From positions 1-64,000 of the forward strand of contig JACPOI010000051.1 in assembly GCA_016185015.1 (NCBI GenBank): DNA of 64,000 nucleotides. Direction: 5' to 3'. How positions within the stretch are numbered: the stretch's first letter is position 1; each line of letters starts with the position of its first letter. The notes under the pieces were generated by a model. That model ran no database searches, was not told the DNA's origin, and saw only the letters and a program-made list of their open reading frames with translations. Both the position numbers and the translations under genes were made by a program. This document shows, piece after piece, positions 41,106 to 58,588 of this stretch. The DNA is from Burkholderiales bacterium. GTDB taxonomy: Bacteria > Pseudomonadota > Gammaproteobacteria > Burkholderiales > Burkholderiaceae_C.

Positions 41106-41647
41106 TGCAGCGTCGCGACCTCCTGGGCCTGACCCTGGCCACGCTGGCCGGTCCGGCGCTGGCCCAGCGCGGTTATGACGTGACCCCCTGGCCAGCCAGG
41201 CAACCGGTGCCCGCTCTGCGGGCGCTCGATTTGCAGGGCAAGACCTGGACCCTGGCCGACCTGCGCGGCCGCGCCGTGGTGCTGAACTTCTGGGCCACTT
41301 GGTGCCCGCCGTGCCGTGCCGAGATGCCCTCGCTGCAGCAGCTGGCCGAGATCTACGGCCCCGAGCAGTTGCTGGTGCTGGCGGTCAATGTCGGCGAAGG
41401 CCCGCGGCGCATCACCCAGTACCTGCAGTCCAGTGGCCTGGAACTCACCGTACTGCTCGACCCGCAGAGCGAGGCCACCAAGGCCTGGGGCGCCAATGTG
41501 CTGCCCACCACCATCCTGATCGACGCTGAAGGGAGCCCGCGTCAGCGCGTGCGTGGTGAGGTGGACTGGTCCGGTCGCGAGGCCTCGGCCCTGGTCGAGC
41601 CGCTCCTGCGCGGCAAGCCCCAGCGCGCCAGCGGCGTTTCGACGTAA
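41105..41647 (+). CDS. TlpA-like thiol-disulfide oxidoreductase
   Basis: A 180-residue exported thioredoxin-fold protein with the active-site motif CPPC at residues 67-70 ([14 protein letters not shown]) and the cis-Pro loop VLPTTILID. The N-terminus has a twin-arginine-like pattern ([12 protein letters not shown]), suggesting Tat or Sec export and a periplasmic reducing role, for example in cytochrome c or copper-protein maturation. ATG 41105 shares one base with the alaS stop, so it is translated by re-initiation. Its last 106 bases overlap the 3' end of the opposite acyltransferase gene. Confidence 0.9.
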
Positions 41648-42654
41648 CGCTCGAAAGCCCAGGCCAGCGCCATGCTGGCCAGCCAGTAGCCGAGCACGAC
41701 GCAGGCCAGCGTGGCGGCGCTCGTAGCGCCCAGCTGTGCATAGAAGGCATTGACGAGCATGAGCACGGGGAAGTGGATCAGGAAGAGCGCATAGGACGTC
41801 TGTGCGCCGCGGTGCAGCAGCTGCCGCAAGGGCGCAGGCAGCGGATGCTCCCGTCGCGGAAAGCGGTGCCGATGCCATACGAGGGCACCCAGCAGCAGGG
41901 CCACGACCAGCGCCAGGGCAATGCGTTCACGGAACTCCAGCCAGAGCGCAGCGATGCCGATCAGCGCCAGCAAGCCCAGCGCGGCCAGCGGGTGGCGCGA
42001 GCGCCCGGCCCACCAGGCCGCAGCGCCCAGGCCATAGGAGCCGAAGAAGTACAGGGCCCAGGGCTCCAGCTCGGGCTGGCGGTTGAAGAGCAGCAGCGAG
42101 ACCAGCATCAGGCCCAGCACCAGCAGGACCGTCACGGTCTTGCTGGCATCCAGCCGATAGCCCAGGCGCATGAGCACGGCCAGCAGCAGGAAGAGCTGGA
42201 AGTCGATGGCCACATACCAGGTGCCGGCCGACAGGGCTTCGATGTCCAGCACGTCCTGCAGCAGCAGGGCATGGGCCAGGACCTGGCCCCAGCCCGGTGC
42301 GGCCGGCACAAATTCGTCATTCAGAACCAGCCGTGTCAGCGCCGCACCGGCCACGGCCAGCAGCAGGGCGGCGAAGAAAGGCAGGACCAGGCGCTGGTAG
42401 CGTCGTACCAGGGCCATGCGCAAGGAGGACTGGGCGCTGGCCATGGGCCCCAGGTGCTGCACTGCGAGGAACCCGCCCAGCACCAGGAAGAGCTGGACCG
42501 CCATGCGGGCGTAGTCGTAAAGCCAGCCGCCGACGGTGGGTGCCGTGCGGTGCAGGGCCTCGGCCAGCGGACCGTAGGCTGACAGATGGTGCAGGACGAT
42601 GAGCTGCGCGCCCAGGGTCTTGAGACCGTCGACAAAGGTGTGCCGAACCTGCAT
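41542..42654 (-). CDS. Acyltransferase 3 family membrane protein
   Basis: A 370-residue integral membrane protein with about ten predicted helices and the N-terminal acyltransferase-3 pattern: [18 protein letters not shown], with the HH pair near residue 22, and a later [10 protein letters not shown] segment. Such proteins O-acetylate polysaccharides, lipid A or Nod factor-like glycans in the inner membrane. There are no glycan biosynthesis genes nearby. It is the downstream gene of the Tgl-like protein on the same strand (17-bp gap), so the two may form an operon. Confidence 0.85.
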
Positions 42655-42671: not shown

Positions 42672-43847
42672 TCAGGTCCTGGGGATGGGCATGTCCGACG
42701 TACCGGGGCGCACCCAGCGCGCGAACTCGCGCGTGGTGTCCATGCAGCCACCGGCTTCGGTGTAGACGCCGCGTGGCTCGCGCCAGCGGGTCATGCGCGC
42801 CATGACCTGCGCCAGCTCGTCCGGGTTGGCGAGCGTGGCCTCGATCATGGGTTCGATGCGGACCTCGTCGATCTGCGATTCACCTTGGTCGTCGCGGTAC
42901 AGGCCGTGGCGCCAGTGGTAGATCTCGACGCATTTGCGGGTGAGGGTGTAGGGCTGATGCTGTTTCCAGAAATTGGTGAACAGGCCGTTGCCCAGGTACA
43001 TGACCCAGGACCCCTCGAAACCGCAGGCGTCGGCCGAGGCCTCGTCGGGGTTGCGGAACCAGACGCGGTCGCCCGGCACGTAATACAGCGGCGGTACCGG
43101 TGCGTCCATCGAGCCCTGCTCGCGCAGGAAGACGGAGTGGAACTCCTCGGACATGATGGCGCGCTGGCGCCAGACGTCCTGCAGGCGCTCGAACAATTCG
43201 GCGTTGCTGCGCGACAGTTCCTGGGCGATGCCCAGCAGGGTCACGTATTCGGTGGCGCGGTAGCAGGAGAAGGAGTAGAGCCGGCCCGAGATTTCGGGCT
43301 GCGTGGTCTTGACCAGCGCGTCAATCAGCGGCACGTCCGGCAGCAGGGTGAAGCCCCGGTCTTCGTGGTAGGTCCAGCAGTCCTGGGGGCGCTCGGCGGC
43401 TGCGGTGTCGAAGGCCAGCGTGGTGCGGCGCGCGGCCTGCACGATGTTGCGGCGGATGTGGATGGCCGACTCGAATTCGTCCAGGCTGGGGAAGTCCAGG
43501 CCGGTCGGGCTCATGAGCAGGGTCACCAGGATCTCGCGCTGCAGGTCGGTATCGCTGTCCAGCGTGCGCAAGCCCAGGGTGCCGGCCAACCGCATGGTGT
43601 TGTGGCCCGGTGCCCAGGCCTGTCGGGCGGGGTGGTCCAGCCAGAGCCGCACCCCATGGCCCAGCGGGCCATGGCCGGGTTCGGCATGGATCTGCGCGGC
43701 CAGGTCGCTGGCGCCCAGCCGCTCCAGGACGACACGGCGCACACTTTCGGTGCTGTGGCTGCCCACGCCGCGCAGCAGGATGCCGCGACTGGCAAGCCCT
43801 TGCCCTGTCTGCTCCATCGTGTTGAAGGTCTCCAGCAGCTTTCTCAT
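42672..43847 (-). CDS. Tgl-like (protein-glutamine gamma-glutamyltransferase family) protein
   Basis: A 391-residue protein whose residues about 125-300 align by eye with Bacillus Tgl, the spore-coat transglutaminase: [16 protein letters not shown], the segment around [27 protein letters not shown] and [10 protein letters not shown] followed by [12 protein letters not shown]. Cys195 corresponds to the catalytic Cys of Tgl (in YAFECATA). The neighbouring catalytic Glu is replaced by Ser194, and the second Glu (in GENV) by Ser280, so cross-linking activity may be lost or altered. The N-terminal 120 residues are extra. No signal peptide is seen, so it is probably cytoplasmic. ATG 43847 is chosen; the longer frame upstream is non-conserved. 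Function unknown. Confidence 0.62.
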
Positions 43848-43866
43848 AGAAGTGACGGTCAATATA

Positions 43867-43895
43867 CCCCAAGGTTCGTGGGGTTTAGCTTGGGG
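43867..43895. promoter_or_regulatory. Inverted repeat in the divergent transglutaminase promoter
   Basis: CCCCAAG (43867-43873) and CTTGGGG (43889-43895) are perfect arms with 15 bases between. The site lies 20 bp upstream of the Tgl-like gene and 125 bp upstream of the opposite gene; a shared operator is possible. Confidence 0.4.
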
Positions 43896-44019
43896 ATTAC
43901 TCCGGGGTGGGGTGGGCCCGATAATCTCGACTGTCACGGCATCCCAGCCGTGCGCACGCCGTTCCGGAGCACCTTGACCTGCGCCGGCGGCGTTCACACA
44001 CCATGACGGAGCTCTCTTG

Positions 44020-45132
44020 ATGACCACCGAACGTCGAACCTTCCTGAAGAACGCGGCAGCCCTGTCGGCCGCCTACACGCTGCCGGCCCTGGGCCTGGCG
44101 CAGACCGCGCCGGCGCAGCGCCAGTTCAACCCCCAGCCCGGCGCCTGGCGCACTTTTGAGGTGACGACCCGCGTCGACATCCAGCAGGCCGAAGGCGCCA
44201 CCCGCGTCTGGCTGCCGGTGCCCTCGGTCGATGCCGACTGGCAGCGTTCGCTGGGCAACAGCTATGCCAGCAATGGCCAGGCCCGCATGGGCAGCGACGC
44301 GGTCTATGGTGCCCGGCTGCTGCAGGTGGACTTCACGCCCGGCGAGAAAAAGCCCTGGGTCGAACTGACCAGCCGCATCCAGACCAACAACCGCGCCGTC
44401 AACTGGGCGGCCAAAAAGCCGGCCCCCGAGGCCGCTGCCAATCTCCAGTTCTGGACCCGGCCCACGGCCCTGCTGCCCACCGACGGCATCGTGCGCAAGA
44501 CCGCGCTGGAAGCCACGCGCGGCGCCCGGACCGACGCCGAGAAGGCGAAGAAGATCTACGACTGGGTGGTGGCCAACACCTGGCGCGAACCCAAGGTGCG
44601 CGGCTGCGGCGAGGGCGACATCAAGACCATGCTGGAGACCGGCAACCTGGGCGGCAAGTGCGCCGACCTGAACGCGGTTTTCGTCGGCCTGTGCCGTGCC
44701 GTGGGCCTGCCCGCGCGTGACGTCTACGGCCTGCGCCTGGTGCCTTCGGCCTTCGGCTACAAGGAACTCAGCGGCAACCCGGCCAGCCTCAAGGGCGCGC
44801 AGCACTGCCGCGCCGAGGTCTATCTCAAGGACCATGGCTGGGTGGCCATGGACCCGGCCGACGTGGCCAAGGTCATGCGGCTGGAGACGCCGCAGTGGAT
44901 CAAGAACACCACCGACCCGGTGGTGGCGCCCGTCAACCAGGCCCTGTTCGGCGGCTGGGAAGGCAACTGGCTGGCCTGGAACATGGCGCATGACGTGGCG
45001 CTGCCCGGCGCCAAGGGCCCCAAGCTGGGCTTCCTGATGTACCCGGTGGCCGAGACCGCCGAAGAGCGCCTGGATTCCTATTCGCCCGACGCCTTCAAGT
45101 ACCATATCACGGCGCGCGAACTCACGGTCTGA
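44020..45132 (+). CDS. Exported transglutaminase-like (papain-fold) protein
   Basis: A 370-residue secreted protein with a Tat-type signal (ERRTFLKNAAALSA) and a transglutaminase-like core domain. The catalytic triad is intact: Cys214 in GGKCADLN, His262 in AQHCRAEVYL and Asp278 in VAMDPAD. Bacterial members of this fold are mostly peptidases or amidases rather than cross-linking enzymes, so a periplasmic cysteine hydrolase is likely. ATG 44020 has GGAG eight bases upstream; a TTG at 44017 is rejected. It is divergent from the Tgl-like gene. Confidence 0.88.
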   Translation: MTTERRTFLKNAAALSAAYTLPALGLAQTAPAQRQFNPQPGAWRTFEVTTRVDIQQAEGATRVWLPVPSVDADWQRSLGNSYASNGQARMGSDAVYGARLLQVDFTPGEKKPWVELTSRIQTNNRAVNWAAKKPAPEAAANLQFWTRPTALLPTDGIVRKTALEATRGARTDAEKAKKIYDWVVANTWREPKVRGCGEGDIKTMLETGNLGGKCADLNAVFVGLCRAVGLPARDVYGLRLVPSAFGYKELSGNPASLKGAQHCRAEVYLKDHGWVAMDPADVAKVMRLETPQWIKNTTDPVVAPVNQALFGGWEGNWLAWNMAHDVALPGAKGPKLGFLMYPVAETAEERLDSYSPDAFKYHITARELTV

Positions 45133-45214: not shown

Positions 45215-46357
45215 TCAGTTACGCAGCCGCCCGTTGCGCGTGACCATGGCCAGTTCCACGTACTTGCTGCCGTGGTTCTGCTCGGGCCCGTAATGCACGG
45301 TGTAGCCGCCGACGTCATAGCTGCCCAGGGTGCGCAGCGCGGCCAGCGTGGCCTTGGCGTCGCCGACGCGCTTGCTGCGGCGCATGGCCTCGGCCAGCAC
45401 CTTGGCGCCGATGCAGGCCTCCAGATGCGTGCTGTTCATGGGTTTGCTGATGCCGGCGTCCAGCAGGGCCTTGCCGCACTCGCGGATGATGGGCAGCGAG
45501 GCCGAGGCGTTGGGCACCACCTGCGAAATGGAGGCGCCGGCGCCGGCCGCACCGGCGGCGTCGATGTACTGCTGCGCCCCGACGAAGGACAGGCTGGACA
45601 TGGGCACGTAGAGGCCGCGTGCGGTCAGCTGCTTGCTGATGTCGGCCGCGGGACCGGAGAGCACGGTGTTGATGATGACCTCGGGCTGCAGGGCGACCAG
45701 CGCATCCATCTTGGCGGCGTCGATCCTGGCATTGCGCTGCAGCGCGAAGGCCTTGGGCGTCTTGCCCTGGCGCACCAGGTAGTCGGTGACCACCGCCAGG
45801 TTCTGCACGCCGACCTCGTCGTCGTAGTGCACCACCACTACCTGTTTCATGCCCAGGCTCATCCAGAAAGTCAGCATCTTCTCCAGCTCGTCGCCATAGG
45901 AGGCGCGCAGCGTGTAGACCACCGGGCTGGGCTTGCGCACCGGGTTGGCGCCGGAGAAGGGCGCATAAAAGAGCACACCGGCCTTCTCGGCCTGGGGCAT
46001 GGCGTCCAGGCTCAGCGTCGCCGAGCCGTAGCCGAACAGGGCCACCAGGCCCTTGGTCTGCAGCAGTTTGCTGGTGTTCTCGCCGGCGATCTTGCGCTGG
46101 TTCTGGTCGTCCAGGGTGAGCAGCTCGACCGGGGCCCCGGCCACGCCGCCCTGGGCGTTGAGCATCTTGAAATAGGCCAGCGCACCGTCGCGGATGTCCT
46201 GGCCGAAGACGGCGTTGCTGCCGGAGATCGGTGCCGACTGGCCGACGACCCAAGCGTTCTGGGCGTGGGCGCTGGTGTGCAGCAAGCCGCCCAGCGTCCA
46301 CAGCAGAGTGGCCAGGCCCAGGCGCTTGAAGTGTCGAGTGAACATGTGCGGTCCCAT
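45215..46357 (-). CDS. ABC-type branched-chain amino-acid-like binding protein (copy B)
   Basis: A 380-residue periplasmic protein of the LivJ/Peripla_BP_6 type with a signal peptide ending near SAHA-QNA. The start of the mature protein (NAWVVGQSAPISGSNAVFG) and the DDQNQRKIAGENTSKLL segment are typical of ligand-binding type I folds for amino acids or aromatic acids. It is highly similar to the upstream gene, roughly three quarters identical by eye, so the pair is a tandem duplication. No permease or ATPase genes are adjacent. ATG 46357 lies within an inverted repeat that could hide the start codon; ATG 46345 is an alternative. Confidence 0.88.
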   Translation of the reverse strand: MGPHMFTRHFKRLGLATLLWTLGGLLHTSAHAQNAWVVGQSAPISGSNAVFGQDIRDGALAYFKMLNAQGGVAGAPVELLTLDDQNQRKIAGENTSKLLQTKGLVALFGYGSATLSLDAMPQAEKAGVLFYAPFSGANPVRKPSPVVYTLRASYGDELEKMLTFWMSLGMKQVVVVHYDDEVGVQNLAVVTDYLVRQGKTPKAFALQRNARIDAAKMDALVALQPEVIINTVLSGPAADISKQLTARGLYVPMSSLSFVGAQQYIDAAGAAGAGASISQVVPNASASLPIIRECGKALLDAGISKPMNSTHLEACIGAKVLAEAMRRSKRVGDAKATLAALRTLGSYDVGGYTVHYGPEQNHGSKYVELAMVTRNGRLRN

Positions 46358-46464: not shown

Positions 46465-47577
46465 TCAGTTGCGCAGCTTGCCGCCGCGCGTGACCATGCC
46501 CAGTTCCACGTACCTGCTGCCGTGGTTCTGCTCCGGTCCGTAGGTCACCGTGAAGCCGCCGGTATCAAAACTGCCCAGATTCCTCAGGGCAGCCAGCAGG
46601 GCCTTGTGGTCGCCGGGTTTCTTGCTGCGGCGCATGGCCTCGGTCAGCACCTTGGCGCCGATGCAGGCTTCCAGGTGCGTGCTGTTCATGGCCTTGGTGA
46701 CGCCGGACTCCTGCAGGGCCTTGCTGCATTCGCGCACGACGGGCAGCGACGCACCGGTGCTGGGCACCACCTGGGAGATGGACACACCGGCGCCGGCATC
46801 GCCGGCGGCGTCGATGTACTGCTGCGCGCCGACGAAGGACAGGCTGGACATGGGGATGTACATGCCGCGCGCCACCAGCTGCTTGCTGATCTCGGCGGCC
46901 GGGCCGGAGAGCACGGTGTTGATGATGACCTCGGGCTTGAGCGCGGCCAGCTGTGTGAAGCGGGCGTCGTCCAGCTTGGCATTGCGCTCCAGGGCGAAGG
47001 CCTGCGGCTGCTTGCCCTGGCGCGCCAGGTAGTCCTTGACGACGCCCAGGTTCTGGATGCCGACCTCGTCGTCGTAGTGCACCACCACCACCTCTTTCAT
47101 GCCCAGCCCGGTCCAGAAGGCCAGCATCTTCTCCAGCTCGTCGCCGTAGGAGGCGCGCAGCGTGTGCACCACGGGGCTGGACTTGCGCACGGGGTTGGCA
47201 CCGGAGAAGGGGGCGAAGAAGAGCATGCCGGCCTTCTCGGCCTGGGGCATGGCGTCCAGGCTCAGCGTGGCCGAGGCGTAGCCGAACAGCGCCACCAGGT
47301 TGCGGTTCTGTAGCAGCTTGGTGGTGTTCTCGCCGGCGATCTTGCGCTGGTTCTGGTCATCCAGCGTGATCAGTTCGATGGGTGCGCCGCCCACGCCGCC
47401 CTGCGCATTGACCATCTTGAAATACGCCAGGGCGCCGTCGCGGATGTCCTTGCCGAAGACGGCATTGCTGCCGGAGAGCGGTGCCGATTGGCCGACGACC
47501 CAGGCGTTCTGGGCCGATGCTGTCGTGCCGATCAAGGTTCCCAACGCGCACAGCAGCGCGGATATGGTTGTACGCAT
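46465..47577 (-). CDS. ABC-type branched-chain amino-acid-like binding protein (copy A)
   Basis: A 370-residue periplasmic binding protein with a signal peptide ending at TASA-QNA. It is the upstream member of the tandem pair and keeps the same core: NAWVVGQSAPLSGSNAVFG, VALFGYASATLSLDAMPQAEKAG, and the Cys pair in RECSKAL and LEACIGAK. The divergence between copies is spread over the whole length, so the duplication is not recent. The ligand is unknown; transport would require a permease encoded elsewhere, or the protein may feed a sensor. Confidence 0.9.
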   Translation of the reverse strand: MRTTISALLCALGTLIGTTASAQNAWVVGQSAPLSGSNAVFGKDIRDGALAYFKMVNAQGGVGGAPIELITLDDQNQRKIAGENTTKLLQNRNLVALFGYASATLSLDAMPQAEKAGMLFFAPFSGANPVRKSSPVVHTLRASYGDELEKMLAFWTGLGMKEVVVVHYDDEVGIQNLGVVKDYLARQGKQPQAFALERNAKLDDARFTQLAALKPEVIINTVLSGPAAEISKQLVARGMYIPMSSLSFVGAQQYIDAAGDAGAGVSISQVVPSTGASLPVVRECSKALQESGVTKAMNSTHLEACIGAKVLTEAMRRSKKPGDHKALLAALRNLGSFDTGGFTVTYGPEQNHGSRYVELGMVTRGGKLRN

Positions 47578-52828: not shown

Positions 52829-55800
52829 ATGAATGCACCCCTGCCCGCCAGCGTGACGCAAACCTCTGCCAGCCAGACCTACGAGTCTGTCTCCCGCCTC
52901 AGCAACGAAGTCGCCGGCCGCCTGGCCGCGCGCCTGCGCGCCGAGACCAAGGGCGAGGTGCTGTTCAGCCCGGCCGACCGCGGCCGTTACGCCACCGATG
53001 CCTCGATCTACCAGGCCATGCCCGTGGGTGTGTTCCTGCCGCGCGAGGCCGCCGACGTGCGTCTGGCCATCGACATCTGCCGTGACCTGAAGGTCCCCAT
53101 CGTGCCGCGCGGCGGCGGCACCAGCCAGTGCGGCCAGACGGTGGGTGCGGGGCTGGTCATCGACCACAGCAAACACATGCGCAAGATCCTCGACGTCAAC
53201 GTCGAGCAGCGCACGGCCCGTGTGGAGCCCGGCCTGGTGCTGGACCACCTGAACGCCGACCTCAAGAAACACGGCCTCTGGTACCCGGTGGACGTGTCCA
53301 CCAGCGCGCAGGCCACGCTGGGCGGCATGGCCGGCAACAACTCCTGCGGCAGCCGCTCCATTGCCTACGGCAATATGGTGCACAACGTCATCGGCGCCCA
53401 GGCCTGGCTGGCCGACGGCGAGCTGCTGACCTTCGGCCGCTACGACACGGCCAGCGGCCGCGTGAAACAGATCGGCGACTACGTGCGCGGCCTGGCCGGC
53501 CTGCACCGCGACGAGATCGAGGCGCGCTGGCCCAAGGTGCTGCGCCGTGTGGCCGGCTACAACCTGGACATCTTCCACAACCAGAACGAGAAGCCCTACA
53601 CCAGCGACGGCTCGGTCAACCTGGCGCACCTGCTCATCGGCAGCGAAGGCACGCTGGCGCTCACGCGTTCGCTCTGCCTGCAGCTCAGCGAACTGCCGCG
53701 CGCCAAGGTGCTGGGCGTGGTGAACTTCCCCACGTTCTACCAAGCGATGGACAGTGCCCAGCACATCGTCAAGCTGGGCCACAACATGCGGGGCGGGGCG
53801 CTCACGGCCGTGGAGCTGGTCGACCGCACCATGATCGAGCTCTCGCTGCAGAACCCGGCCTTCGCCCCCACCATCCGCACCGCGCTCTCGCCTGCCATCA
53901 GCGGTGGCAAACCCGAAGCCGTGCTGCTGGTGGAGTTCTCCGGCGCGAGCAAGGCCGACATCGCGCCCAAGATCAAGGAACTGGTGGACCTGATGGGCGA
54001 GCTGGGCTTGCCTGGCAGCGTGGTGGAGATGATCGACGACGCCCCGCAGAAGAACCTGTGGGAAGTGCGCAAGGCCGGCCTGAACATCATGATGAGCCTG
54101 CGCGGTGACGGCAAACCCGTGAGCTTCATCGAAGACTGCGCCGTGCCCCTGGTGCACCTGGCCGAATACACCAACGCGCTCACCGAGGTCTTCAGCAAAT
54201 ACGGCAGCCGCGGCACCTGGTACGCCCACGCCTCGGTCGGCACCCTGCACGTGCGGCCCATCCTCGACATGCGGCGTGGTGGTGCGGCCAAGATGCGCGC
54301 CATTGCCGAAGAGGCGAGTGAACTGGTGCGCAAGTACAAGGGCGCCTACAGCGGCGAGCACGGCGACGGTCTGTGCCGCGGCGAATGGATCGAGTGGCAG
54401 TTCGGCCCGCGCCTCACGCAAGCCTTCACCCAGATCAAGGAGTACCTGGACCCCGCCAAGCTGCTCAGCCCCAAGCGCATGATCGACCCGCCCAAGATGG
54501 ACGACACCACGCTGATGCGCTTCCCGCCCAGCTACAAGGTCGTGCCGATCCAGCCCGCGCTGGACTGGAGCGCCTGGAACGTGCAGGCCGACCCGGTGAC
54601 CGAAGTGACCACCGCCCCCGGCACCGGCGGCGACCCGGCCCAGGGCCTGGCCAAGGCCGTGGAGATGTGCAACAACAACGGCCACTGCCGCAAGTTCGAC
54701 GCCGGCACCATGTGCCCGAGCTACCGCGTCACACGCGACGAGCAGCACCTCACGCGCGGCCGCGCCAACACCCTGCGCCTGGCGCTCTCCGGCCAGATCG
54801 AGGGGCTGGACGGCAAGGACGCCTTGACCAGCGAAGTCGTGCGCGAAGCGATGGATCTCTGCGTGAGCTGCAAGGGCTGCAAGCGCGACTGCCCCACCGG
54901 CGTGGACATGGCCAAGCTCAAGGTCGAGTTCCTGCAGCACTACAAGGCCAAACACGGCCACACGATCAAGGACAAGCTCGTCGGCCAGCTGCCCGACTAC
55001 GCACGCCACGCCGCGAAGATCGCCCCTGTGCTCAACCTGCGCGACAAGCTGCCGCTCATGGCCCAGCTCAGCGAAAAGCTCTTCGGCTTCTCCGCCAAAC
55101 GCGGTCTGCCGCAATGGAAGAGCCGGCACTTCTTCAACACGCCCGTGCAGAGCGCCACGCGTGAAGAGGTGCTCACCGCCCTGAAACCCGTGGTGCTCTT
55201 CGTCGACACCTTCAACGGCTTTTTCGAATCCGAGAACGCCCACGCCGCGCTGTTGGTGCTGCAGGCCGCCGGCTACACCGTGCACGTGGCGACCAAGGTG
55301 CAGGATGACGGCAAGCACCTCTGCTGCGGCCGCACCTTGCTCTCCGCCGGCATGGTGGACCAGGCCAAGGTGAAAGCGCGTGAGGTCGTGGAGAGCCTCT
55401 TGCCGTTTGCGGAAAAGGGCATCGCCATCGTCGGCCTGGAACCGTCTTGTCTGCTCACGCTGCGCGACGAGCTGCTGGTTATGGGCCTGGGCGAACCCGC
55501 GCAGGCCATCGCCAAGCAGGCGCTGCTGTTCGAAGAATTCCTGGCCCGCGAGGCCAAGGCCGGCCAGCTGGAAGCGTTCAAAGTCAAACTCAAACCCGTG
55601 AGTCAGCCCGTGCTGCTGCACGGCCACTGCCACCAGAAGGCCTTTGCCGCCGTCACGCCCGTGATGGAAGTGCTGTCATTGATTCCCGGCGCCAAGCCCG
55701 AACTCATCGAGTCCAGCTGCTGCGGCATGGCCGGCAGCTTCGGCTACGAGGCCGAGCATTACGAGGTCTCCATGCAGATGGCCGAGGCCAATCTGCTGCC

Positions 55801-55927
55801 TGCGGTGCGCGCCAAGGCGGATGCGATAGTCGTGGCCGACGGCACCAGTTGTCGCCACCAGATCGCGGATGGCGCGCAGCGCGAAGCGGTGCACGTGGCG
55901 AAGCTGTTGGCGGGGCAGTTGGGCTAG
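52829..55927 (+). CDS. ydiJ: YdiJ-like FAD/FeS D-2-hydroxyacid dehydrogenase
   Basis: A 1032-residue membrane-associated oxidase. The N-terminal FAD-binding (PCMH-type) domain has PRGGGTSQCGQTVGAG near residue 92 and GGMAGNNSCGSRS near 168; the GlcD-like cap follows. Ferredoxin-type clusters lie in CNNNGHCRKFDAGTMC and CVSCKGCKRDCPTG (about 612-690), and the C-terminus has Cys-rich motifs GHCHQ and ESSCCGMAGSFGYE. The layout and length match E. coli YdiJ, reported as a D-2-hydroxyglutarate dehydrogenase; lactate or glycolate are other options. It is co-transcribed with gntR. Confidence 0.92.
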   Translation: MNAPLPASVTQTSASQTYESVSRLSNEVAGRLAARLRAETKGEVLFSPADRGRYATDASIYQAMPVGVFLPREAADVRLAIDICRDLKVPIVPRGGGTSQCGQTVGAGLVIDHSKHMRKILDVNVEQRTARVEPGLVLDHLNADLKKHGLWYPVDVSTSAQATLGGMAGNNSCGSRSIAYGNMVHNVIGAQAWLADGELLTFGRYDTASGRVKQIGDYVRGLAGLHRDEIEARWPKVLRRVAGYNLDIFHNQNEKPYTSDGSVNLAHLLIGSEGTLALTRSLCLQLSELPRAKVLGVVNFPTFYQAMDSAQHIVKLGHNMRGGALTAVELVDRTMIELSLQNPAFAPTIRTALSPAISGGKPEAVLLVEFSGASKADIAPKIKELVDLMGELGLPGSVVEMIDDAPQKNLWEVRKAGLNIMMSLRGDGKPVSFIEDCAVPLVHLAEYTNALTEVFSKYGSRGTWYAHASVGTLHVRPILDMRRGGAAKMRAIAEEASELVRKYKGAYSGEHGDGLCRGEWIEWQFGPRLTQAFTQIKEYLDPAKLLSPKRMIDPPKMDDTTLMRFPPSYKVVPIQPALDWSAWNVQADPVTEVTTAPGTGGDPAQGLAKAVEMCNNNGHCRKFDAGTMCPSYRVTRDEQHLTRGRANTLRLALSGQIEGLDGKDALTSEVVREAMDLCVSCKGCKRDCPTGVDMAKLKVEFLQHYKAKHGHTIKDKLVGQLPDYARHAAKIAPVLNLRDKLPLMAQLSEKLFGFSAKRGLPQWKSRHFFNTPVQSATREEVLTALKPVVLFVDTFNGFFESENAHAALLVLQAAGYTVHVATKVQDDGKHLCCGRTLLSAGMVDQAKVKAREVVESLLPFAEKGIAIVGLEPSCLLTLRDELLVMGLGEPAQAIAKQALLFEEFLAREAKAGQLEAFKVKLKPVSQPVLLHGHCHQKAFAAVTPVMEVLSLIPGAKPELIESSCCGMAGSFGYEAEHYEVSMQMAEANLLPAVRAKADAIVVADGTSCRHQIADGAQREAVHVAKLLAGQLG

Positions 55928-56078
55928 GCGGGCTGGCTCGCTTTACTGCGGCATAGTGCTTGACAGTCTGTCTTCGACCCATAGGCGCCATGGGTCCGAA
56001 GGGCGAGCAGACGTTCGTCGATTTTGACCAAGAATGGTTCTACGATGTGCGCTGGGGACCCAATGACAGGCCAAACCT

Positions 56079-56810
56079 ATGCACGAGCAAGAACTTGAGA
56101 AGATCATCGGCACCCTTCGCGAGATGGAAGGTCGCTTTGAGCAGTCGACCACTGCTACGGCATCGCACTTGAACAGTGCTGACCGCGCTTCCTTCAAACG
56201 TCTAATGCTGGAAGCCAAGGGAATCTTGGGCGCAGCGTTAGGCCTCAATGATTTTGGGGTCCCGTTGCTTCTGATGACAAACCTTCCCGGATACGGCGTA
56301 CTCAATCCGCCATCGATCGAGCAGCTCCACGAGGCTATTGGACTGATTGAAGGCGGGCTCAATCAAGTGCGCCGCAAGATCAGTCAGGTTGGCAAGCCAA
56401 ACGGTGCTCCGTCGAAAGCAGCATATGTCGACCCGACGCGCATTCTGCAATTGCGTAGCATCAAATCACACCAATGGGACCTGAAACGCCTGGTGCGTCT
56501 GCTTGAAGAATTGAATTCTGCGCACGAGCACGAACTGCATATGGCGTCTGCAATGCTTGTCCGAGCCGTAGTCGATCACGTGCCTCCTATCTTTAATGCA
56601 AAGAACTTCTCCGAGGTTGCAAACAACTATCCAGCGCCTCGATCATTTAGCGATCAAATGCGGCAGTTGGACACATCGCTGAGGAAGATCGCTGACATGC
56701 ATCTACATCAGCCAGTACGGAAAGCGGAGGCACTTCCACTTGCGCCACAGGTGGATTTCCGTGGCGCTCTCGATGTATTGCTTTCTGAGGTGGTTCGGTT
56801 GCTTCAATAG
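56079..56810 (+). CDS. Low-GC hypothetical protein, possible HEPN-like C-terminus
   Basis: A 243-residue protein with visibly lower GC and different codon use from its neighbours. The N-terminal 110 residues are helical, with LHEAIGLIEGGLNQVRRKI; the C-terminal 100 (LRSIKSHQWDLKRLVRLLEE to the end) are also helical and contain SLRKIADMHLH. That is an R-x5-H pattern as in HEPN ribonuclease or nucleotide-binding domains. I recognise this C-terminal pattern only from uncharacterised proteins. There is no partner gene. It is probably acquired DNA inserted between ydiJ and uspA. The ribosome site is weak. Confidence 0.65.
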   Translation: MHEQELEKIIGTLREMEGRFEQSTTATASHLNSADRASFKRLMLEAKGILGAALGLNDFGVPLLLMTNLPGYGVLNPPSIEQLHEAIGLIEGGLNQVRRKISQVGKPNGAPSKAAYVDPTRILQLRSIKSHQWDLKRLVRLLEELNSAHEHELHMASAMLVRAVVDHVPPIFNAKNFSEVANNYPAPRSFSDQMRQLDTSLRKIADMHLHQPVRKAEALPLAPQVDFRGALDVLLSEVVRLLQ

Positions 56811-56982
56811 GAGTTCGCGGGCCTGGACCCTGGAACCAAAGATCGAGCGGCAACATTTAGTTTGCTTGCGAATGACTATTGATGGTCGTTAGGAGTCGTT
56901 TCGTGGGTGATGAGGTTGGCGGCGGCCGCAGATCGCCCTAAGATGCAAGTACCGCAGTGCATTCAATCTGAGGAGACTCGCC

Positions 56983-57420
56983 ATGTACAAACGCATCTTG
57001 TTGGGCTACGACGGCTCCGAATCCGGGCAGCAGGCCCTGCTGGGCAGCCGCGAGATTGCGCAGTGGAGCCAGGCCGAGCTGGTGCTGGTGGCCGTGATGC
57101 CGCTGCCCATCGCTTCTCTTGGTCCCGAGGGCGGGCTCTACGACCCCAAGGTGGAGGAGATCGAGCGGGAGCGTTACCGCCTCATCCTTGAAGCCGGGGT
57201 GGAGCGCCTGGCGCAGTCGGGTTTGCAGGCACGCGGTGAGGTGCTCAGCGGTGACCCGGTGCACGAGCTGGCCAAGGCCGCCGGCCGTCTGCGGGCCGAT
57301 CTGATCGTGCTGGGGCACCAGCACCAGGACAGTTGGGCGGCGCGCTGGTGGCGCGGCTCGGTGTCCAAATCGCTGATCGAGCATGCGCCCTGTAGCGTGC
57401 TGGTGGTGATCACGCACTGA
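56983..57420 (+). CDS. Universal stress protein UspA family
   Basis: A 145-residue cytoplasmic stress protein starting MYKRILLGYDGSESGQQALL, with the conserved D in YDGSESG and a C-terminal GSVSKSLIEHAPCSVLVV. The ATP-binding G-2x-G-9x-G(S/T) motif is incomplete (GHQHQDSWAARWWRGS), so nucleotide binding may be weak. An AGGAGA ribosome site precedes ATG 56983. It is followed directly by a long-hairpin repeat element. Confidence 0.92.
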   Translation: MYKRILLGYDGSESGQQALLGSREIAQWSQAELVLVAVMPLPIASLGPEGGLYDPKVEEIERERYRLILEAGVERLAQSGLQARGEVLSGDPVHELAKAAGRLRADLIVLGHQHQDSWAARWWRGSVSKSLIEHAPCSVLVVITH

Positions 57421-57562
57421 GAACTTGCGAATAAATCTACTGCGCGACCCGATCGCCGCGTTGGGCGGTGCTCGGAATCCTCACGTACCGGAAGTACGTT
57501 CCGGTTCCTGCGCTCCGTCCGCCTTGCGCTCGGGCCGCTCGCTACGATTTCTTCACAAGTTC
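57421..57562. repeat. About 142-bp long-hairpin intergenic element
   Basis: The ends are 11-bp imperfect inverted repeats: GAACTTGCGAA (57421-57431) and TTCACAAGTTC (57552-57562), 10 of 11 matching. The complementarity continues inward for most of the element, for example GACCCGA with TCGGGCC, and closes at ACCGGAA-GTACG-TTCCGGT (57487-57505). The whole can fold into one long hairpin, like REP/MITE-type repeats of Burkholderiales. A second 18-bp dyad (57562-57579, CTGAGCGG/CCGCTCAG) overlaps its right end. Confidence 0.7.
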
Positions 57563-57598
57563 TGAGCGGGACCGCTCAGCCGCGCAGCAACGCGCCCT

Positions 57599-58588
57599 TC
57601 AGTCGTTGGCCTTGAAGCCGGTGGCGCGCACTACCTCGGCCCAGCGTGCGGTCTCGGCGGCGATGGTGGCGGCAAAAGCGTCACCGTATTCCTGCGGCAC
57701 ATCGAAACCCTGGGCTTCCAGCCGGGCACGGTAGTCACCATCGGCCTGCGCCTTCTGCGTGGCGGCGGCGATGGCGTCGAGCACCGGCTTGGGCGCGGCG
57801 GCCGGTGCCAGCAGGCCGAACCAGATGGTGGTGTTGAGTTCCTTGTAGCCCAGCTCGGCCAGCGTGGGCACCTGCGGCAGGTGGCGCGAACGCTGCGGGC
57901 TGGTCACGGCGATGGGATTGAGCCGGCCCGACTGCACGTGCGGGATCACCGACTGCAACTGGGCGAAACCCAGCGGCACCTGGCCGCCCAGCAGGTCGGT
58001 GGTCTGCGGGCCCGAGCCCTTGTAGGGGATGTGGGTCATGTCCAGCTTGAAACGCTGGCTGAGCTGATAACCCAGGAATTGCGAGGGCGTGCCCGGGCTG
58101 AAGGAGGCATAGGCGGCCTTGCCGGGGTTCGCGGCCGCCCACTTGACGAGCTCGGGCAGTGTGCGGGCCGGCACCGAGGGATGGGCAACGAGCACCAGCG
58201 GCGCTTCCACGCCCTTGGCGATCGGCTTGAAGCCCGCTTGCTGCCAGCGCTGGTTGGGATAGACCGAGGGGTTGATGGTCATCATGGCTTGGGTGCCGAT
58301 CCACAGCGTGTGGCCGTCGGGCTGCGCCTTCTGCACGAACTCGGCGCTGATGTTGCCGTTGGCGCCCGGCTTGTAGTCCACGAGGAAGGTGCCACCCGTG
58401 ACCTTGCCCAGTTGCTGGGCCAGGGCGCGCGCATAGGCGTCGATGGCGCCGCCGGGCGGCGTGCCGACGATGAGCGTGACCGGCTTGCTGGGCCAGACGG
58501 GGGCTTGCGCGCTGGCGGCCCAGGGGCTGAGCAGGCAGGCGCCGGTCAGGGCCAGCACCAGGCGGCGGGCACGGTGGATGGGGTTCAT
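57599..58588 (-). CDS. Bug/TctC-type substrate-binding protein
   Basis: A 329-residue periplasmic solute receptor with a signal peptide (about 1-28, ending ASAQA) and Bug pattern KPVTLIVGTPPGGAIDAYAR (about 35-54), VDYKPGANGNISAEFV and HIPYKGSGPQTTDLLGGQV (about 193). It follows a second Bug gene and the sulfatase gene on the same strand, with 33 bp to the next. A GAGGAGA ribosome site precedes ATG 58588. The ligand may be a carboxylate or aryl sulfate breakdown product of the same locus (inference). Confidence 0.92.
   Translation of the reverse strand: MNPIHRARRLVLALTGACLLSPWAASAQAPVWPSKPVTLIVGTPPGGAIDAYARALAQQLGKVTGGTFLVDYKPGANGNISAEFVQKAQPDGHTLWIGTQAMMTINPSVYPNQRWQQAGFKPIAKGVEAPLVLVAHPSVPARTLPELVKWAAANPGKAAYASFSPGTPSQFLGYQLSQRFKLDMTHIPYKGSGPQTTDLLGGQVPLGFAQLQSVIPHVQSGRLNPIAVTSPQRSRHLPQVPTLAELGYKELNTTIWFGLLAPAAAPKPVLDAIAAATQKAQADGDYRARLEAQGFDVPQEYGDAFAATIAAETARWAEVVRATGFKAND

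What the first reader, a model, noticed from the sequence alone, without database searches (positions are those of the whole stretch)
42672..43847. Tgl-like transglutaminase homologue with both catalytic glutamates replaced
Residues 125-300 align by eye with the Bacillus spore-coat transglutaminase Tgl, a family mostly known from spore formers. Cys195 matches the catalytic Cys, but the two assisting Glu positions are Ser194 and Ser280. A proteobacterial member with a 120-residue N-terminal extension may have a new activity or act as a binding protein.
Basis: partly seen in the sequence, partly recalled or inferred. Interest (0 to 1): 0.75.

Follow-up and report, generated by a model that had tools for sequence, protein, structure and literature searches.

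The report
Tgl-like enzyme with a shifted glutamate
A protein-crosslinking enzyme family known from bacterial spores has a conserved branch in bacteria not known to form spores, in which the catalytic cysteine stays but the acid that helps it appears to have moved two positions along the chain, which suggests an active enzyme with a changed job rather than a dead copy.

Summary
The gene lies on the minus strand (43847→42672, 391 aa). It matches Pfam TGL (E=1.6e-33), and its AlphaFold model (pLDDT 90) has two PDB matches below E=1e-3, both Bacillales Tgl enzymes. Cys195 aligns with the catalytic Cys; Ser194 and Ser280 align with Glu115 and Glu187. This is no local oddity: 73 of 73 aligned relatives (72 distinct) keep Ser194-Cys195 and Glu278-Gly-Ser280-Trp281; one truncated relative outside that set has Ala194.

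In the Cys-bearing TGL proteins I could read, a Glu sits at the 187 or the 185 site, never both; one (Niallia) has neither. A sister clade keeps the same Glu-Gly-Ser (15 of 15), and one Cys-less clade lost Glu278 and Ser280 in 5 of 5, one keeping Asp.

I read it as an active Cys–Glu enzyme with the acid shifted two residues, cytosolic, more likely an amidase or acyl-transferase than a protein cross-linker. No activity or atomic distance was measured. New variant of a known kind.

The parts
42672..43847 (-). TGL-family gene, 391 aa, ATG start
   Evidence: the close relatives L002-L008 also begin with M-R-[KR]-L at this Met
43554..43799 (-). N-terminal extra domain, residues 17-98 (strand-helix-helix-strand-strand-helix-helix)
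   Evidence: AlphaFold pLDDT 86.5, pTM 0.71; best PDB match E=0.41, none significant; weakly constrained, dN/dS 0.32-0.87 for residues 17-95 in 6 comparisons
42780..43556 (-). Tgl (NlpC/P60-like) domain, residues 98-356
   Evidence: Pfam PF20085 E=1.6e-33; Foldseek 7c9j 1.0e-7 and 4p8i 4.5e-7
43263..43265 (-). Cys195 codon, catalytic cysteine equivalent, first residue of helix 195-214
   Evidence: invariant 73 of 73
43266..43268 (-). Ser194 codon, replaces Glu115
   Evidence: Ser in 73 of 73; Ala in one truncated relative outside that set, L111
43014..43016 (-). Glu278 codon, proposed replacement acid (site of Bacillus Arg185)
   Evidence: 73 of 73; 15 of 15 in the sister clade; Q, Q, D, G, G in the five Cys-less proteins
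43008..43010 (-). Ser280 codon, replaces Glu187, on strand 279-286
42675..42779 (-). C-terminal tail, residues 357-391, with the motif Gly-Gly-Cys-x-Asp-x-x-Arg-Glu (366-374)
   Evidence: Cys368 72 of 73, Asp370, Arg373 and Glu374 73 of 73; dN/dS 0.04-0.14 over 35 codons
41542..42654 (-). Next gene on the same strand, 17 bases downstream, membrane acyltransferase (Acyl_transf_3), possible operon partner
   Evidence: Pfam PF01757 E=3.6e-20; next to the TGL gene on the same strand in 15 of 47 loci, the window's own included

Best explanation
It is an active cytosolic cysteine enzyme of the Tgl fold. Cys195 attacks a carboxamide or ester carbonyl to form a thioester, as in Tgl. The acid/base partner is no longer Glu187 or Glu115 but Glu278, two residues earlier at the strand edge, with Ser280 filling the old acid position. 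The thioester is then resolved by water or by a specific nucleophile, so the product is more likely a hydrolysed or singly transferred acyl group than a protein-protein cross-link. Shown: fold, homology, Cys position, invariance, and the either/or pattern of the acid in the proteins examined. Inferred: that Glu278 reaches Cys195, that the protein is active, where it acts, and that its substrate is not a Gln/Lys protein pair.
For: Cys195, Glu278 and Ser280 are each invariant in 73 of 73 aligned relatives (72 distinct), down to 44% pairwise identity in the core. One more relative, L070, has the same motifs. A sister clade, in which another residue is commonest at 31 of 61 main-clade near-invariant positions, keeps Cys195, Glu278 and Ser280 in 15 of 15 (my count of its list). 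Proteins with Glu at the 187 site carry Q, Q, S, R, M or A at the 185 site: 7c9j, L048, L057, L058, L109, L110 (the last five placed by eye on the motif). The Cys-less clade lost Glu278 (Q, Q, D, G, G) and Ser280 (T, T, L, R, R) in 5 of 5 but kept Trp281, Ser194, Arg373 and Glu374. [quoted passage not shown] Cys195 begins a helix and Ser280 lies on strand 279-286 in the model. His200, whose Ala variant showed no detectable activity in Bacillus Tgl and which the same paper calls important for substrate interaction rather than essential to catalysis, has no conserved counterpart here, which argues for a changed substrate.
Against: No coordinates of the model were available, so the Cys195-Glu278 distance is not measured, and the Foldseek superpositions on 7c9j and 4p8i have rmsd 10.4 and 10.8 A over 226 and 251 columns, so the models fit only in part. 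The Cys-less proteins form one clade of one genus, so their loss of Glu278 is probably one event, one of them keeps an Asp there, and the loss is not specific: 13 of 61 near-invariant positions changed in all five. In the sister clade Glu278 is one of 21 of those 61 positions kept in 15 of 15. Glu200, Glu243, Glu308, Asp268, Asp370 and Glu374 are also invariant in the main clade. The dN/dS of the Tgl domain is in the range of neighbouring genes (0.05-0.38 in 8 valid comparisons), so constraint alone does not single it out. Niallia has neither Glu185 nor Glu187 but has Glu115. No substrate, partner or phenotype is known.
Confidence: 0.5

Rival explanations
1. It is a true protein cross-linking transglutaminase that simply uses Glu278 in place of Glu187, making Gln-Lys isopeptide bonds on cytosolic proteins.
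For: Same fold and family; catalytic Cys kept; Bacillus Tgl itself tolerates loss of Glu187 with about 60% activity (PMC6490927, passages).
Against: Positions whose Ala variants had no detectable activity (Glu115, His200) or only residual activity (Asn188) in Bacillus Tgl are Ser194, no conserved His, and Trp281 here. NCBIfam's Tgl equivalog model scores 38 bits against a cut-off of 307. No spore coat substrate is expected in these bacteria (general knowledge).
Confidence: 0.2
2. It is a non-catalytic binding or scaffold protein that keeps the Tgl pocket.
For: Both known acids are gone. A Cys-less clade of one genus keeps the fold signature and the N-terminal domain, so the scaffold may have a role without the Cys.
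Against: Cys195 is invariant in 73 of 73 and 15 of 15 in the sister clade, which would be odd for a pure binder; the Tgl domain has dN/dS 0.11-0.25 in 6 comparisons.
Confidence: 0.15
3. Cys195 is catalytic but its partner is not Glu278: it is His237, Asp268 or the C-terminal Cys368/Asp370/Glu374 motif folding over the pocket.
For: His237 is kept in 72 of 73, Asp268, Asp370 and Glu374 in 73 of 73. The tail is as constrained as the core (dN/dS 0.04-0.14). Asp268 is also kept in 15 of 15 of the sister clade and lost in all five Cys-less proteins, so it tracks the Cys as well as Glu278 does.
Against: The sister clade has Glu at the His237 site in 15 of 15 and mostly other residues at Cys368 (Leu 11), Asp370 (Leu 6) and Glu374 (Val 10 of 15). 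In the five Cys-less proteins Glu374 is kept in 5 and Cys368 and Asp370 in 1 (L114), so the tail does not track the Cys. For Asp268: it is also present in 7c9j and Niallia beside the usual acids, so it is not a replacement special to this clade.
Confidence: 0.12

Closest known systems
Bacillus subtilis spore-coat transglutaminase Tgl (PDB 4p8i, 4pa5)
   Same: Fold, position of the catalytic Cys, Pfam TGL membership
   Different: Glu115 to Ser194, Glu187 to Ser280, Asn188 to Trp281, Arg185 to Glu278, no conserved His at the His200 site, about 100 extra N-terminal residues and a conserved C-terminal motif
Geobacillus stearothermophilus transglutaminase (PDB 7c9j)
   Same: Best sequence and structure match
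   Different: Has Glu-Cys and Gln-Gly-Glu-Asn at the active site
eCIS_core-TGL fusion proteins in genomes of the same order (L048, L109)
   Same: TGL domain with the catalytic Cys
   Different: Keep Gly-Glu-Asn at the 187 site; fused to an eCIS_core domain (PF13699); possibly injected cargo. An eCIS toxin with a DUF4157 and a transglutaminase-like domain (EAT14) is described in PMC11297309 (passages)
Sister TGL clade with signal-peptide-like N-termini by eye (L051-L053, L055, L056, L059, L100-L108)
   Same: Cys195, Glu278, Gly279, Ser280 in 15 of 15
   Different: Gly at the 194 site in 15 of 15, Asn at the 281 site in 14 of 15, another residue commonest at the Cys368 and Asp370 sites

Membership tests
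Pfam TGL (PF20085) | Score above the curated cut-off | tested here: met
   116.4 bits against 23.7, residues 98-356
Pfam TGL (PF20085) | Tgl fold | tested here: met
   Model pLDDT 90.4; only 7c9j and 4p8i below E=1e-3 in PDB, TM-score by target 0.65 and 0.62, by query 0.36 and 0.40, rmsd 10.4 and 10.8 A
Functional Tgl transglutaminase (EC 2.3.2.13) | Catalytic Cys116 | tested here: met
   Cys195, 73 of 73
Functional Tgl transglutaminase (EC 2.3.2.13) | Glu115 (Ala variant without detectable activity, PMC6490927 passages) | tested here: not met
   Ser194 in 73 of 73, Ala in L111
Functional Tgl transglutaminase (EC 2.3.2.13) | Glu187 of the Cys-Glu dyad | tested here: not met
   Ser280 in 73 of 73; a Glu stands two residues before it
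Functional Tgl transglutaminase (EC 2.3.2.13) | His200 at the back (Lys-side) entrance | tested here: not met
   No conserved His between 288 and 300; ungapped counting puts Phe293 there, the mixed alignment has a gap
Functional Tgl transglutaminase (EC 2.3.2.13) | NCBIfam Tgl equivalog NF002869 above cut-off | tested here: not met
   38 bits against 307
Functional Tgl transglutaminase (EC 2.3.2.13) | Amine incorporation or Gln-Lys cross-linking activity | not testable with these tools
   needs purified protein

The most novel reading that the evidence does not exclude
The catalytic carboxylate of a papain-like (NlpC/P60-type) Cys-Glu enzyme has hopped two residues along the same strand (Arg-Gly-Glu to Glu-Gly-Ser), once, at the base of a Gram-negative branch, creating a cytosolic and a secreted enzyme family with a new Cys-Glu geometry and a reaction other than protein cross-linking, and one genus that turned the cytosolic enzyme into a Cys-less pseudoenzyme.
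Probability: 0.3. Interest if true: 0.65.

Novelty: new variant of a known kind. Interest (0 to 1): 0.48.

Why it matters
Tgl was described as a small, structurally simple transglutaminase with two partly interchangeable acids (PMC6490927, passages). A conserved clade that keeps the Cys but has neither acid, and instead an invariant Glu two residues away, is a natural test of which geometry the chemistry needs. It also marks an uncharacterised enzyme, present in 31 of 299 genomes of the family sample and 32 of 399 of the order sample (my tallies of the main clade), that would be labelled 'protein-glutamine gamma-glutamyltransferase' by its Pfam match.

Tried and rejected
Functional partner from gene neighbourhood: in 47 loci, the window's own (L001) and one identical pair (L008, L021) included, the TGL gene is followed on the same strand by Acyl_transf_3 in 15 (in 4 of these the script called it an overlap, because frames were extended upstream) and has it divergent in one more (L035). 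A Transglut_core gene stands on the opposite strand upstream in 12. Many of these loci hold only about 1 kb of flank, so both counts are lower bounds. Elsewhere the neighbours are unrelated genes (histidine phosphatase, release factor domains, chaperonin, AlgH-like, histidinol dehydrogenase and others; 17 neighbour families scanned by one representative each among the 20 proteins; for the order). No constant partner, so no pathway is claimed.

Mobile-element origin: no match in 72,556 plasmid records at E 0.01 and none in viral contigs by six peptide patterns.

Identity of the N-terminal domain: Foldseek on its own model gave nothing better than E=0.41; the weak winged-helix-like and ribosomal hits are not used. 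A profile of the domain finds it in the Cys-less proteins but in only 1 of the 15 sister-clade proteins (L059, 7e-5).

Co-occurrence of the two clades: 4 of 7 genomes with the sister clade also hold the main clade (31 of 299) in the family sample, 3 of 9 (32 of 399) in the order sample (my tallies; hypergeometric P 0.003 and 0.03). Relatedness is not controlled, so it is not used.

dN/dS yardsticks (4 neighbouring genes in L002, L003, L007): Transglut_core 0.16-0.26, substrate-binding protein 0.16-0.38, CaiB-like 0.05-0.15. The CaiB value for L007 (1.08) is invalid (that locus is cut and the wrong frame was matched) and is dropped. The acyltransferase (0.45-0.54) involves copies only about 54-60% identical.

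Tree: 45 rows chosen by hand (19 main, 14 sister, 5 Cys-less, 7 Glu187-type or Bacillaceae); the trait's own columns were left in, five Glu187-type rows have long branches and nine rows an odd composition, so 'one shift' is only the simplest reading (support 96/87; main clade alone 78/79, main plus Cys-less 100/99).

Script faults: one search stopped with an error and was redone; the L051 line is in a wrong frame and is not used.

Papers: searches (2 of 2 listed; 20 of 89 listed; 8 of 8; 8 of 34; 10 of 10; 1 of 1) listed no work on this clade; in 39 and 54 the rest of the list was not seen. PF20085 is named in one paper of the library (PMC10318531, passages read). The 2015 Tgl structure paper is not held; its residue data come from passages of PMC6490927. 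PMC9689123 and PMC11297309 were seen as passages only.

Full report
What is there. The finding's frame lies on the minus strand, window 43847 to 42672, 391 residues plus stop. The ATG at 43847 is supported by the closest relatives L002-L008, which begin with the same Met-Arg-(Lys/Arg)-Leu. Pfam TGL matches residues 98-356 at E=1.6e-33. phmmer against the PDB finds the transglutaminase 7c9j at 4.5e-6 (Geobacillus stearothermophilus). A profile of 46 sequences finds 7c9j at 9.6e-12 and B. subtilis Tgl 4p8i at 2e-4. The genome gave one match to the TGL model.

The substitutions. In these alignments Phe-Ser194-Cys195 lies over Phe-Glu-Cys of both 7c9j and 4p8i (Glu115-Cys116 in B. subtilis numbering), and Phe-Glu278-Gly-Ser280-Trp281 over Trp-Gln-Gly-Glu-Asn of 7c9j; the 4p8i alignment does not reach the second site, and that B. 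subtilis has Trp184, Arg185, Glu187 and Asn188 there is from PMC6490927. From passages of that paper: Tgl has a dyad Cys116-Glu187, in which Glu115 can stand in for Glu187; [quoted passage not shown] that of Glu187 keeps about 60%; that of Asn188 has residual activity; [quoted passage not shown] In the window protein Glu115, Glu187, Asn188 and His200 are replaced or absent; Cys116 is kept.

Is it a local mutation? No. One scan of genome contigs gave 15 relatives; those with a named genus are Curvibacter, Hylemonella and Polaromonas, two are titled only 'uncultured beta proteobacterium'. The closest, 93% identical, is Curvibacter, from which I infer that the window's order is Burkholderiales. 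Searches with the Pfam model matched 39 of 299 genomes of the same family (26 of 141 genera), 40 of 399 of the order (26 of 159 genera), and 4 of 398 of the phylum, all four in the same order. A profile search with A1 over the class matched 1 of 274, the window's own genome. I aligned the main-clade relatives that came as loci: 73 rows, of which L008 and L021 are identical in the core. Ser194, Cys195, Glu200, Glu278, Gly279, Ser280 and Trp281 are the same in 73 of 73; pairwise identity in the core goes down to 44%. Two further main-clade members were not in that alignment: L070 has the same motifs, and L111, cut by its contig end before Glu278, has Ala at 194 and Cys at 195. So Ser194 is nearly invariant, Cys195 invariant, and Glu278/Ser280 invariant wherever they could be read.

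A carboxylate at either of two sites. Looking only at sites 185 and 187: Glu at 187 with another residue at 185 occurs in 7c9j (Q), L048 (Q), L057 (S), L058 (R), L109 (M) and L110 (A) (all but 7c9j placed by eye on the motif). Glu at 185 with Ser at 187 occurs in the main clade (73 of 73) and in a sister clade, 15 of 15. I found no Cys-bearing protein with both. The protein of Niallia has neither (Arg and Val) but keeps Glu115. In the sister clade another residue is commonest at 31 of the 61 near-invariant main-clade positions, among them 194 (Gly in 15 of 15); 21 of the 61 are kept in 15 of 15, among them Cys195, Asp268, Glu278, Ser280, Glu308 and Arg373 (my count of its list). L050, a broken member of that clade with an in-frame TGA, was left out of these counts; its second piece also reads Glu-Gly-Ser-Asn.

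A natural Cys loss. In one genus (g92) 5 of 9 genomes hold a TGL protein and none of the 5 has the Cys: it is Ser, Gly, Gly, Pro, Pro. Glu278 is Gln, Gln, Asp, Gly, Gly; Ser280 is Thr, Thr, Leu, Arg, Arg; Asp268 is lost in all 5. Of the 61 positions 27 are kept in all five and 13 lost in all five. The five are one clade (100/97), so this is probably one event, supportive but not independent replication. That the N-terminal domain is retained in them suggests that the scaffold can be of use without the Cys.

Structure. AlphaFold2 on the 46-row alignment gives pLDDT 90.4 and pTM 0.91. Foldseek finds two solved structures below 1e-3, 7c9j and 4p8i (TM-score by target 0.65 and 0.62, by query 0.36 and 0.40, rmsd 10.4 and 10.8 A), so the fold is the same but the whole-chain fit is loose. 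Cys195 is the first residue of helix 195-214 and Ser280 lies on strand 279-286, with Glu278 just before the strand. The distance Cys195-Glu278 is not measured.

Constraint. Pairwise Nei-Gojobori estimates for 6 relatives give dN/dS 0.11-0.25 for the Tgl domain, 0.32-0.87 for residues 17-95 and 0.04-0.14 for the last 35 residues. Neighbouring genes give 0.05-0.38 in 8 valid comparisons, so the Tgl domain is constrained like an ordinary working gene, not more. The C-terminal motif Gly-Gly-Cys-x-Asp-x-x-Arg-Glu is as constrained as the core; Cys368 is kept in 72 of 73 and Asp370, Arg373, Glu374 in 73 of 73. Its role is open.

Surroundings. The next gene, 17 bases downstream on the same strand, is a membrane acyltransferase of the Acyl_transf_3 family, adjacent in 15 of 47 loci and divergent in one more. 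A gene with a Transglut_core domain starts divergently upstream (44017), seen in 12 of 47 loci. In the other loci the neighbours change. The consensus scan saw no sigma-70 promoter at 43780-44080, but a sequence GGGTATATT just before the start codon recurs in 12 of 74 loci, the window's own included, all but a few of them close relatives, and in different reading frames, so it is probably a DNA element such as a -10 box.

How it most likely works. Inferred: Cys195 forms a thioester with its acyl substrate; Glu278, at the tunnel's front entrance, acts as the acid/base that Glu187 or Glu115 provides in Bacillus; Ser280 hydrogen-bonds in the old acid site. With Trp281 in place of Asn188 and no His200, both substrate doors of Bacillus Tgl are changed, so I expect a hydrolase or a transferase with another acceptor. 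There is no signal peptide by eye, so the substrate is taken to be cytosolic. The rivals are a true cross-linker with a shifted acid, a pure binder, and a Cys enzyme with another partner residue, of which Asp268 is the hardest to exclude.

Compared with what is known. It is a member of the Pfam family and fold by test. It fails the residue tests for a functional Tgl transglutaminase and the NCBIfam equivalog cut-off (38 against 307 bits). PMC10318531 (passages) describes migration of active-site residues in papain-like proteins and, in the passages seen, mentions TGL with its Bacillus example only. My paper searches listed nothing on this clade; two of the lists were cut, and the library holds only open-licence papers.

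Noticed in passing
window 44017-45132 (+): A Transglut_core protein, with a weak sub-cut-off twin-arginine signal hit, starts divergently next to the TGL gene; two transglutaminase-like genes side by side, in 12 of 47 loci.
   Followed up: partly
window 41542-42654 (-): The acyltransferase next to the TGL gene is only about 58% identical to its counterpart in Curvibacter L002, while the genes around it are 92-97% identical: fast divergence or replacement.
   Followed up: no
window 43847-43880 (-), just before the TGL start: A GGGTATATT element recurs shortly before the start codon in 12 of 74 loci, read in different frames, and occurs once in the whole window on either strand; perhaps a -10 box of a very short leader.
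   Followed up: partly
L048:2701-5484, L109:1236-2588: TGL domains fused to an eCIS_core domain (PF13699), with the Gly-Glu-Asn site intact, in genomes of the same order; they look like contractile-injection cargo.
   Followed up: partly
L112-L116 (genus of G268): Five TGL proteins without the catalytic Cys; candidate pseudoenzymes.
   Followed up: partly
L050:3915-5201: A sister-clade gene interrupted by an in-frame TGA in G099, whose genome also holds an uninterrupted main-clade gene.
   Followed up: no
window 45215-46357 and 46465-47577 (-): Two tandem ABC substrate-binding proteins, 79% identical to each other: a duplication.
   Followed up: no
window 55001-58000: G+C drops to about 0.59-0.61 against 0.64-0.70 elsewhere, over mostly short ORFs; a possible insertion.
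   Followed up: no
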